Shown here: positions 13,942 through 59,829 of the stretch, piece after piece
Numbering within the stretch: position 1 is the stretch's first letter
Layout: each line of letters starts with the position of its first letter
Assembly: GCF_007990445.1 (NCBI RefSeq)
Contig: NZ_AP019841.1
Location: 2,232,001-2,296,000 of the forward strand
Source of the DNA: Leptotrichia wadei
GTDB taxonomy: Bacteria > Fusobacteriota > Fusobacteriia > Fusobacteriales > Leptotrichiaceae
Direction: 5' to 3'
Length of the DNA stretch: 64,000 nt
Notes under the pieces: generated by a model
The model's input: only the letters and a program-made list of their open reading frames with translations
What the model was told of the DNA's origin: nothing
Database searches by the model: none
Program-made: the position numbers and the translations under genes

Positions 13942-14018
13942 TGGCGTCCCCGGTTGGACTCGAACCAACGACCCTCTGATTAACAGTCAGATGCTCTAAC
14001 CGGCTGAGCTACGGAGAC
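13942..14018 (-). tRNA. tRNA-Asn (GTT), operon 1
   Basis: 77 nt including an encoded CCA. Acceptor GTCTCCG pairs with CGGGGAC, the anticodon loop CTGTTAA gives GTT, and TTCGAGTCC is the T loop. It closes the 16S-23S-5S-tRNA operon. An identical copy is at 55040-55116. Confidence 0.97.
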
Positions 14019-14034
14019 ACACATATTTAAAAAA

Positions 14035-14148
14035 GTTTGGCAACTACCTATCTTCCCAGGACGAATCCAAGTATTTTAGGCACTAACAGACTTAACTGCC
14101 GGGTTCGAAATGTTTCCGGGTGTATCCCTGTCGTTATCATCACCAAAC
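14035..14148 (-). rRNA. rrf: 5S ribosomal RNA, operon 1
   Basis: About 114 nt, starting GTTTGGTGATGATAACGACAG and ending GTAGTTGCCAAAC so that the ends pair; contains the conserved CGAACCCGGCAGTTAAG segment. It lies between 23S and tRNA-Asn. Confidence 0.95.
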
Positions 14149-14207
14149 TAGATATATATACTGTCCATTAAGACAATGAGAAATAAATAGCAGCAGCAAA
14201 AGATTAT

Positions 14208-17106
<2,899 letters not shown>

Positions 17107-17217
17107 ATCCAGAATAACTTTTTACTCTAGTTTAGTTATAATCTTTTACCTACTATTCATTTCCCATTGTCCTAACAGTTATAAAGATATATAAAGAAGC
17201 AGTGCTTGTTTCTCCTT

Positions 17218-18732
<1,515 letters not shown>

Positions 18733-47958: not shown

Positions 47959-47986
47959 AAAAAAACAGCACTAACTTGTGAGGCTG
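47959..47986 (-). terminator. Terminator of the small peptide gene
   Basis: Minus strand CAGC (47986-47983) and GCTG (47969-47966) close a hairpin with a 13-nt loop, followed by seven T. The loop contains CCTCACAA, repeated in the 5' leader. Confidence 0.6.
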
Positions 47987-48013
47987 AAATATTCAAGGAG
48001 GAATTAACAGCTT

Positions 48014-48088
48014 CTATTTAGCTCTATTAAACCAGAAAGTTAAAATTACAACTAGAATAATAAATACTAGAAAGTCCCTGTTAATCAT
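48014..48088 (-). CDS. Small hydrophobic peptide (24 residues), possible type I toxin-like
   Basis: An open frame of 24 codons: basic/acidic start MINRDF, a single membrane helix LVFIILVVILTFWF, and the polar basic tail NRAK. The ATG at 48088 has AAAGGAAG 10 nt upstream; an in-frame ATG at 48109 would add seven residues. A promoter-like sequence, a 5' hairpin and a terminator frame it as one short transcript. The design (one short helix with charged ends) resembles type I toxins, but no antisense RNA was identified, and it could be another small membrane protein. Too short to prove coding from sequence alone. Confidence 0.5.
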   Translation of the reverse strand: MINRDFLVFIILVVILTFWFNRAK

Positions 48089-48118
48089 AATTTGGTGTCT
48101 TCCTTTCATATTTTAAAT

Positions 48119-48169
48119 TGTGAGGCGGTAAAATCTCACAGTATTATAACAAAAAAATACTCCTATCAA
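48119..48169 (-). promoter_or_regulatory. Promoter and 5' hairpin of the small peptide transcript
   Basis: Minus strand TTGATA (48169-48164), short 15-nt spacer, TATAAT (48148-48143), then the expected mRNA start TGTGAG (48140-48135) that pairs with CTCACA (48124-48119). It overlaps the terminator of the FUSC gene. Confidence 0.45.
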
Positions 48170-48191
48170 TTAAGATTAGAGTATTTTTTAT
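48152..48191 (-). terminator. Terminator of the FUSC gene
   Basis: Minus strand AATACTCTAATC... pairs with ...GATAGGAGTATT and is followed by T residues, 56 nt after the FUSC stop. Confidence 0.7.
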
Positions 48192-48246
48192 TATATCCAA
48201 ATTTATAGAATTAATTATTTTAAGATATTTTTTAGAAAAAATTAAA

Positions 48247-51712: not shown

Positions 51713-52810
51713 ATGAAATATAATTTAGCATTCAAATACAGGATTTATCCAAATAAGGAACAAGAATTGTTGATAAATAAGACTTTTGGATGTGTTCGTT
51801 TTGTTTACAATACGATTTTGTATGCTGCGAATAAATTTTATGGAGAAACTGGAAAAAATAAAATAATCACACCTGCCAGTTTGAAAAGTGAAAATCAATT
51901 TCTAAAAGAAGTAGACAGTCTAGCACTTTCAAATGCTCAATTGAATGTAAAACGATCGTTTACGAATTTTTTTCAAAAGAGAGCGAAGTTTCCAAAGTTC
52001 AAATCTAAAAAGAATAGTATTAAAAGTTACACGACAAATTGTGTGAATAATTCAATACGAATTGAGGAAAACAAATATTTGGTTTTGCCAAAATTGAAAA
52101 AAGTTAAATTAAAATATCATAGAGAAATACCGAAGGATTACAAGATAAAGTCAGTAACATTGACAAATAGCAATGGAAATTACTATGTTTCTGTTTTGAC
52201 AGAATTTGAAAAAGAAATTCAAAAAATGTCAAGTAATGATAAAGTGATTGGACTTGATTTTTCGATGTCTGAATTATTTGTCAGTTCTGAAAACCAAAGG
52301 GCTGATTATCCAAGATATTTTAGGATGTTGGAGAAAAAATTGAAGAAATTACAGAAATCGTTATCAAGAAAAGTGAAATTTTCTAAAAATTGGTATAAAC
52401 AAAAAATGAAAATATCAAGATTGCATGAGTATATCAAAAATTGCCGAAAGGATTTTTTGCATAAATTATCGAAAAAATTGTCTGAAGAATACAATGCCGT
52501 GGTTGTTGAGGATTTGAATATGAAAGGGATGAGCCAGGCATTAAATTTTGGGAAAAGTATAGGAGATAATGGGTGGGGAATGTTTTTGAGGATGGTTGAG
52601 TATAAACTGATGTTTTTAGGGAAACAATTTTTGAAGATAGATAAGTGGTTTCCGTCATCGAAAACTTGTAGTAGATGTGGAAACGTTAAAGAGAAACTGA
52701 AATTATCAGAAAGAAGTTATAAATGTGAGTGCTGTGGAATTGAGATTGATAGGGATTATAATGCGGCACTGAATATAAAAGATATTGGAAAAGAAATGTT
52801 GAAATATTAG
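51713..52810 (+). CDS. tnpB: TnpB RNA-guided nuclease (IS200/IS605 family OrfB)
   Basis: A complete 365-residue TnpB. RuvC residues are present: Asp182 in VIGLDFSMSELF, Glu266 in VVVEDLNMKGM and Asp348 in DRDYNAALN; the zinc finger has Cys319, Cys322, Cys338 and Cys341. The N-terminal KYRIYPNKEQELLINKTFG is the family start. AAAGGAGGTG is the ribosome binding site. By analogy it cuts DNA guided by an omega RNA made from the element's right end. It appears intact. It is distinct from the TnpB at the left edge. Confidence 0.95.
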   Translation: MKYNLAFKYRIYPNKEQELLINKTFGCVRFVYNTILYAANKFYGETGKNKIITPASLKSENQFLKEVDSLALSNAQLNVKRSFTNFFQKRAKFPKFKSKKNSIKSYTTNCVNNSIRIEENKYLVLPKLKKVKLKYHREIPKDYKIKSVTLTNSNGNYYVSVLTEFEKEIQKMSSNDKVIGLDFSMSELFVSSENQRADYPRYFRMLEKKLKKLQKSLSRKVKFSKNWYKQKMKISRLHEYIKNCRKDFLHKLSKKLSEEYNAVVVEDLNMKGMSQALNFGKSIGDNGWGMFLRMVEYKLMFLGKQFLKIDKWFPSSKTCSRCGNVKEKLKLSERSYKCECCGIEIDRDYNAALNIKDIGKEMLKY

Positions 52811-55039: not shown

Positions 55040-55116
55040 TGGCGTCCCCGGTTGGACTCGAACCAACGACCCTCTGATTAACAGTCAGATGCTCTAACCG
55101 GCTGAGCTACGGAGAC
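55040..55116 (-). tRNA. tRNA-Asn (GTT), operon 2
   Basis: Identical to the copy at 13942-14018, including encoded CCA and anticodon GTT. Confidence 0.97.
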
Positions 55117-55132
55117 ACACATATTTAAAAAA

Positions 55133-55246
55133 GTTTGGCAACTACCTATCTTCCCAGGACGAATCCAAGTATTTTAGGCACTAACAGACTTAACTGCCGG
55201 GTTCGAAATGTTTCCGGGTGTATCCCTGTCGTTATCATCACCAAAC
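55133..55246 (-). rRNA. rrf: 5S ribosomal RNA, operon 2
   Basis: Identical to the 5S at 14035-14148, with paired ends GTTTGG/CCAAAC. Confidence 0.95.
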
Positions 55247-55305
55247 TAGATATATATACTGTCCATTAAGACAATGAGAAATAAATAGCAGCAGCAAAAG
55301 ATTAT

Positions 55306-58204
<2,899 letters not shown>

Positions 58205-58314
58205 ATCCAGAATAACTTTTACTCTAGTTTAGTTATAATCTTTTACCTACTATTCATTTCCCATTGTCCTAACAGTTATAAAGATATATAAAGAAGCAGT
58301 GCTTGTTTCTCCTT

Positions 58315-59829
<1,515 letters not shown>

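What the first reader, a model, noticed from the sequence alone, without database searches (positions are those of the whole stretch)
47959..48169. Compact transcript for a 24-residue membrane peptide with possible 5'-3' pairing
In 210 nt of the minus strand there are a -10/-35 pair, a hairpin at the expected RNA start (TGTGAG/CTCACA), a 24-codon frame with one membrane helix and a terminator. CCTCACAA occurs both in the 5' hairpin and in the terminator loop, so the RNA start could pair with its 3' end instead. Such long-range pairing is a feature of type I toxin mRNAs.
Basis: partly seen in the sequence, partly recalled or inferred. Interest (0 to 1): 0.6.

Follow-up and report, generated by a model that had tools for sequence, protein, structure and literature searches.

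The report
Orphan type I toxin in Leptotrichia
The tiny membrane-peptide gene belongs to a previously undescribed family of self-poisoning gene pairs in the mouth bacterium Leptotrichia, in which a small antidote RNA sits directly in front of the toxin gene on the same strand; the copy in this window appears to have lost its antidote and to have weakened expression signals.

Summary
The sequence features are real, and the peptide is a genuine gene. It belongs to a family of at least 51 loci with an intact frame: 12 of 13 Leptotrichia genomes, one neighbouring genus, and small plasmids. In nearly every other locus a second, same-strand RNA gene lies directly upstream. It has its own promoter, and its terminator carries the toxin promoter's -35 and spacer. 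This RNA pairs with the toxin mRNA at two sites: the 5' hairpin loop and mostly 11-16 nt beside the Shine-Dalgarno. Pairing follows the locus: cognate mean -28.6 kcal/mol against -17.1 for permuted partners (19 loci, 0 of 20000 permutations). Frames evolve with dS above dN, and the 3' UTR is predicted to cover the start. [quoted passage not shown] I found no report of one in Fusobacteriota.

The window copy differs: its upstream unit is about 46 nt shorter and lacks both pairing elements, no replacement was found elsewhere in the genome, its Shine-Dalgarno is the family's weakest, and its promoter spacer is 15 bp. I read it as an orphan, attenuated toxin. The CCTCACAA pairing is not conserved and is compatible with chance. 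No experiment exists; toxicity and repression are inferred.

The parts
48017..48088 (-). 24-codon toxin-like membrane peptide frame MINRDFLVFIILVVILTFWFNRAK (stop 48016-48014)
   Evidence: homologues; dS > dN
48143..48169 (-). toxin promoter: TTGATA - 15 bp - TATAAT, overlapping the terminator of the upstream unit; family spacer is 16-18 bp (one other at 15)
48119..48140 (-). 5' hairpin TGTGAG-N10-CTCACA with loop UUUUACCG, homologous to the antitoxin-target hairpin of the family
48101..48106 (-). weak Shine-Dalgarno AAAGGA, 12 nt from ATG (-5.9 kcal/mol with the 16S tail; others -8.0 to -18.7)
47995..48010 (-). 3' UTR anti-Shine-Dalgarno / anti-start element CTGTTAATTCCTCCTT that pairs with AAGGAA and GATTAACAG
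47959..47986 (-). imperfect intrinsic terminator holding the second CCTCACAA
48149..48189 (-). what remains between the antitoxin -10 and the toxin -10: a terminator-like hairpin AAAATACTC..GAGTATTTT; elements A and B missing (about 46 nt shorter than in L033)
48190..48195 (-). remnant -10 TATAAT of the lost antitoxin RNA gene; no good -35 (ATAATT where L033 has TTGAAC)

Best explanation
The locus is the toxin half of a type I-like toxin-antitoxin family of Leptotrichia that has lost its antitoxin. In intact copies an upstream, same-strand RNA of roughly 60-90 nt base-pairs with the toxin mRNA (element B with the 5' hairpin loop, element A with the stretch just before and into the Shine-Dalgarno) and so blocks ribosome binding to a 20-24 residue membrane peptide. 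The full-length mRNA is additionally kept inactive by an anti-Shine-Dalgarno in its 3' UTR. In this window the region between the antitoxin's -10 box and the toxin's -10 box is about 46 nt shorter and A and B are missing. The remaining toxin gene is tolerated, I infer, because promoter spacing and Shine-Dalgarno are weak and the 3' UTR still folds over the start. Shown by sequence: family, architecture, locus-specific complementarity, its absence here. Inferred: transcripts, translation, toxicity, repression, tolerance.
For: 51 loci with intact frame and, nearly all, the same layout. Upstream RNA to own leader mean -28.0 against -16.6 kcal/mol for other leaders; 19 non-redundant loci -28.6 against permuted -17.1, sd 0.95, best of 20000 permutations -22.0. 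Two contact sites change together between loci: loop UUCACC with GGUGAA, UUUGACC with GGUCAGA, UUCGCUA with UAGCGGG, UUCUGCAAA with UUUGCAGAA; site A mostly 11-16 bp. Antitoxin-type TATAAT with TTG-type -35 at 16-17 bp in nearly all loci. Mean dS about 3-7 times mean dN in all subfamilies. The window and its G014 copy have no complementarity (z -0.3, +1.1), and no family RNA in the same genome pairs with its leader beyond chance. Weakest Shine-Dalgarno, 15-bp spacer. A syntenic 3' remnant in G004 shows the locus decays.
Against: No transcript or toxicity data. The orphan state rests on sequence: an antitoxin of unusual pairing could be missed (patterns tried gave no meaningful excess over controls). 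A 15-bp spacer also occurs in L230, whose antitoxin is intact. The window frame is intact, and the near-identical G014 copy adds almost no divergence, so decay of the peptide itself is not shown. Where exactly the missing stretch was lost depends on taking the TATAAT boxes as homologous; the automatic alignment put the gap elsewhere.
Confidence: 0.77

Rival explanations
1. One reading: a self-contained toxin mRNA whose 5' end switches between a local hairpin and pairing with CCTCACAA in the terminator, with an antisense RNA on the plus strand.
For: The repeat exists; 5' arm against 3' UTR -15.0 kcal/mol, z -2.0.
Against: 9-mer sharing by chance 6.9%; absent in the 49 other loci; in G004 CCTCACAG is the left arm of a terminator; if the RNA starts at 48136-48137 half of the arm is not transcribed; only weak plus-strand promoter matches.
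Confidence: 0.06
2. The window toxin is not orphaned but controlled in trans by an antitoxin RNA elsewhere in the genome, for example a paralogue's.
For: The leader keeps a hairpin with an accessible UUUUACC loop; the paralogue RNA L043 contains GGUAAAA and AUUUUAA in the right order.
Against: Energies of all six same-genome family RNAs with this leader lie within shuffles (best z -1.4; L043 z -0.8); whole-genome patterns give no meaningful excess over reversed controls.
Confidence: 0.12
3. The upstream element in intact loci is not a separate antitoxin RNA but an attenuating leader of one long toxin transcript.
For: Same strand, adjacent, with a terminator between the two halves.
Against: A second good promoter (TTGAAT, 17 bp, TATAAT) directly at the terminator in most loci would make the leader unnecessary. 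Read-through would indeed yield a self-paired transcript, so both may act.
Confidence: 0.12
4. The peptide is a small regulatory membrane protein, not a toxin.
For: No toxicity data; no family match in Pfam or NCBIfam.
Against: Multicopy, partly plasmid-borne, strain-variable distribution, a locus-specific antisense RNA and an mRNA predicted to be sealed are typical of toxin loci; nothing specific points to another role.
Confidence: 0.12

Closest known systems
tisB/istR-1, zorO/orzO, shoB/ohsC, dinQ/agrB (E. coli loci with antitoxins not encoded opposite the toxin)
   Same: Small membrane toxin; antitoxin RNA encoded next to, not opposite, the toxin and complementary to a limited stretch of the toxin 5' UTR
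   Different: Those antitoxins are divergent and bind long 5' UTRs away from the start site (PMC4147584). Here the antitoxin is in tandem, the leader is short (about 60 nt), two sites are contacted, and one abuts or includes the Shine-Dalgarno
aapA/IsoA of Helicobacter pylori and hok/Sok
   Same: Full-length toxin mRNA predicted inactive through an anti-Shine-Dalgarno near the 3' end (PMC6733600)
   Different: Their antitoxins are antisense on the opposite strand; the peptides show no family relation here; 3' processing was not tested
Fst/Ldr, Ibs, TxpA/BsrG type I toxins
   Same: 20-60 residue single-helix hydrophobic peptides, often multicopy or on plasmids
   Different: No Pfam or NCBIfam toxin model matches these peptides
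Type III toxin-antitoxin loci (ToxIN)
   Same: Gene order: RNA antitoxin, terminator, toxin on the same strand
   Different: Type III RNAs are tandem repeats, with RNase toxins, and repress through the protein (PMC4147584); here the RNA is complementary to the toxin mRNA and the toxin is a membrane peptide

Membership tests
Type I toxin-antitoxin system (the Leptotrichia family) | Small hydrophobic peptide gene conserved as protein | tested here: met
   A1 profile hits, mean dS about 3-7 times mean dN
Type I toxin-antitoxin system (the Leptotrichia family) | RNA gene complementary to the toxin mRNA, specific to its own locus | tested here: met
   by sequence only; transcription not tested
Type I toxin-antitoxin system (the Leptotrichia family) | mRNA with sequestered ribosome-binding site | tested here: inconclusive
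   predicted: mean SD pairing 0.78, mostly with the 3' UTR, over 51 mRNAs; but the anti-SD is only mildly better than shuffled UTRs per locus
Type I toxin-antitoxin system (the Leptotrichia family) | Toxicity on expression and neutralisation by the RNA | not testable with these tools
   needs expression assays
Type I toxin-antitoxin system (window locus itself) | Antitoxin RNA at the locus | tested here: not met
   A and B elements missing; z -0.3
Trans-type divergent loci (tisB/istR kind) | Antitoxin gene divergent from the toxin gene | tested here: not met
   antitoxin on the same strand, upstream
aapA/IsoA or hok/Sok kind | Antitoxin encoded on the opposite strand of the toxin gene | tested here: not met
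   complementarity lies in the same-strand upstream unit; in the window only weak plus-strand promoter matches
Fst/Ldr, Hok, Ibs, TisB peptide families | Match to a curated family model | tested here: not met
   no toxin family at E up to 10 in Pfam or NCBIfam
Type III (ToxIN) | Repeat RNA acting on an RNase protein toxin | tested here: not met
   toxin is a 20-24 residue membrane peptide; the RNA complements its mRNA

The most novel reading that the evidence does not exclude
A type I toxin-antitoxin family of the phylum Fusobacteriota with a gene order I did not find described for type I systems: antitoxin RNA and toxin in tandem on one strand, the antitoxin's terminator carrying the -35 and spacer of the toxin promoter. 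Two-site recognition (hairpin loop plus Shine-Dalgarno flank) would keep several paralogous pairs per genome mutually insulated, and orphan copies such as this one show how such a toxin is tamed when its antitoxin is lost.
Probability: 0.68. Interest if true: 0.75.

Novelty: new variant of a known kind. Interest (0 to 1): 0.62.

Why it matters
A 2025 paper (PMC12390103) states that type I systems were known only from Proteobacteria, Firmicutes and Tenericutes, and adds Cyanobacteria. A family with about 50 loci in Leptotrichia, without a listed gene in the plasmid records checked, would add Fusobacteriota and a tandem layout that searches based on opposite-strand or divergent antitoxins would miss. 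The many naturally diverged toxin-antitoxin pairs are a ready set for studying how RNA pairing specificity evolves, and the window copy is a natural experiment in losing an antitoxin.

Tried and rejected
CCTCACAA switch: rejected as a family feature. Antisense RNA on the plus strand: only weak promoter matches. Antitoxin in trans by degenerate patterns: no meaningful excess over reversed controls, and no pairing beyond chance with same-genome antitoxins. Phage or plasmid copies of the window locus itself: none found; a family peptide gave no phage match. Promoter-plus-RBS pattern over all genome contigs was too loose: one Leptotrichia locus, the rest not examined further. Rfam: only rRNA and tRNA. 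3' UTR anti-SD specificity: cognate -20.0 against -18.5, hardly locus-specific because the Shine-Dalgarno itself is conserved. The two MVDFIAIF copies of L268 show no strong cognate pairing, and L252 has lost its upstream unit.

Full report
What is in the window. On the minus strand, 48169-47959 holds a promoter (TTGATA, 15 bp, TATAAT), a 5' hairpin, a weak Shine-Dalgarno (AAAGGA), the frame MINRDFLVFIILVVILTFWFNRAK (48088-48017), a 3' UTR with CTGTTAATTCCTCCTT and an imperfect terminator. The predicted full-length RNA folds at -37.4 kcal/mol (z -1.84), with the Shine-Dalgarno and first codons paired to the 3' UTR, not to the terminator loop. The GCCTCACAA repeat is present, but a 9-mer is shared in 6.9% of shuffles.

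A family appears. The peptide, and separately the promoter region, find homologues across the genus and in one neighbouring genus. A profile of 18 peptides searched against 98 Fusobacteriota genomes gives a clean gap: hits below E 0.001 only in 12 of 13 genomes of the genus and in G014; elsewhere nothing better than 0.01. G005's contig 7 has the length of a Leptotrichia sp. oral taxon 879 contig found by pattern, and G002's 5413-bp contig has the length and match position of L. hofstadii pJCM16775-3, so the genus is Leptotrichia. I extracted 51 loci with an intact frame. In six subfamilies mean dS exceeds mean dN about three- to seven-fold, so these are real genes. No curated toxin model matches them. 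Leptotrichia plasmids carry copies where no gene is listed; on pJCM16775-3 the copy lies between a plasmid recombination gene and an amidotransferase-like gene, with rep beyond.

The antitoxin. Reading these loci side by side shows a second unit directly upstream on the same strand: a TATAAT about 90-113 bp before the toxin -10, usually with a TTG-type -35 at 16-17 bp, then a short RNA, then a terminator that contains the toxin -35 and whose T-run lies in the toxin spacer. The upstream RNA is complementary to the toxin leader at two places: the 5' hairpin loop (5-9 bp) and a stretch of mostly 11-16 bp ending at or in the Shine-Dalgarno. Different loci use different sequences, and both sides change together. 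Cognate duplexes average -28.0 kcal/mol against -16.6 for other leaders. With 19 non-redundant loci the cognate mean is -28.6, the permuted mean -17.1 with sd 0.95, and none of 20000 permutations came near (best -22.0); 16 of 19 cognates rank first. About 10% of pairs are G-U, which is compatible with RNA pairing.

The 3' seal. In the predicted ensembles of the 51 full-length mRNAs the Shine-Dalgarno is paired on average 78%, mostly with the 3' UTR. In the subfamily of the window the start region and 3' UTR change together: AACAG/CTGTT here, AACGG/CCGTT in L033, AATAG/CTATT in L042, AATGG/CCATT in L035 and L036. Against shuffled UTRs each locus alone is only mildly better than chance, so I treat this as supported, not proven. 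Such 5'-3' sealing is described for type I mRNAs (PMC6733600).

The window copy is broken on the antitoxin side. Between the remnant antitoxin -10 (48195-48190) and the toxin -10 (48148-48143) lie 41 nt, against 87 nt in the relative L033; the terminator-like hairpin remains but A and B do not. The -35 position reads ATAATT where L033 has TTGAAC. The upstream region has no complementarity to the leader (z -0.3; G014 copy +1.1). None of the six other antitoxins of this genome pairs with it beyond chance, and degenerate whole-genome patterns find no meaningful excess. The Shine-Dalgarno is the weakest of the set (-5.9; others -8.0 to -18.7) and the promoter spacer is 15 bp. The G014 copy is the same locus: 99.5% identical in the mRNA, 98.5% and 94.0% in the two flanking genes, 90% beyond.

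Mechanism and standing. For the family I propose translational block of a membrane peptide by a tandem antitoxin RNA, backed by a sealed mRNA; for the window, an orphan toxin with reduced expression. The first is inferred from covariation without any experiment; the second from the absence of elements that all close relatives keep. Known E. coli loci with limited complementarity are divergent (PMC4147584), and type I systems had been reported from three phyla plus Cyanobacteria (PMC12390103). No paper in the library holds both 'type I toxin-antitoxin' and 'Leptotrichia'. Subscription journals are mostly not in the library, so novelty is not certain.

Noticed in passing
L252 (G011 contig 12, 60314-60382): A second apparent orphan: toxin and leader match L251 of G009, but the upstream antitoxin unit is replaced by an unrelated terminator; a pattern search found no matching antitoxin element elsewhere in that genome.
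   Followed up: partly
L060, L089, L091, L067, L093: Degenerate copies: toxin frame deleted or disrupted while the upstream RNA unit persists; in L067 the unit and leader now precede another gene.
   Followed up: no
L061, L062, L090, L094: The fused terminator/promoter motif of the family precedes a gene whose product starts MNYKSTRGG (looks like threonine synthase, by eye) without toxin or hairpin, as if a promoter remnant had been recruited.
   Followed up: no
L024, L026: A short unit with a family-like promoter, in L024 a GGGTTTCACCACCC hairpin, followed directly by a terminator, without a peptide; L024 could be a small RNA able to pair with GGUGAAA Shine-Dalgarno regions.
   Followed up: no
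window 51713-52810 (+): 365-residue frame resembling a TnpB-type IS200/IS605 protein (by eye, not searched).
   Followed up: no
window 13945-18731 and 55043-59828 (-): Two complete rRNA operons with a tRNA-Asn after the 5S gene, only about 40 kb apart in the same orientation.
   Followed up: no
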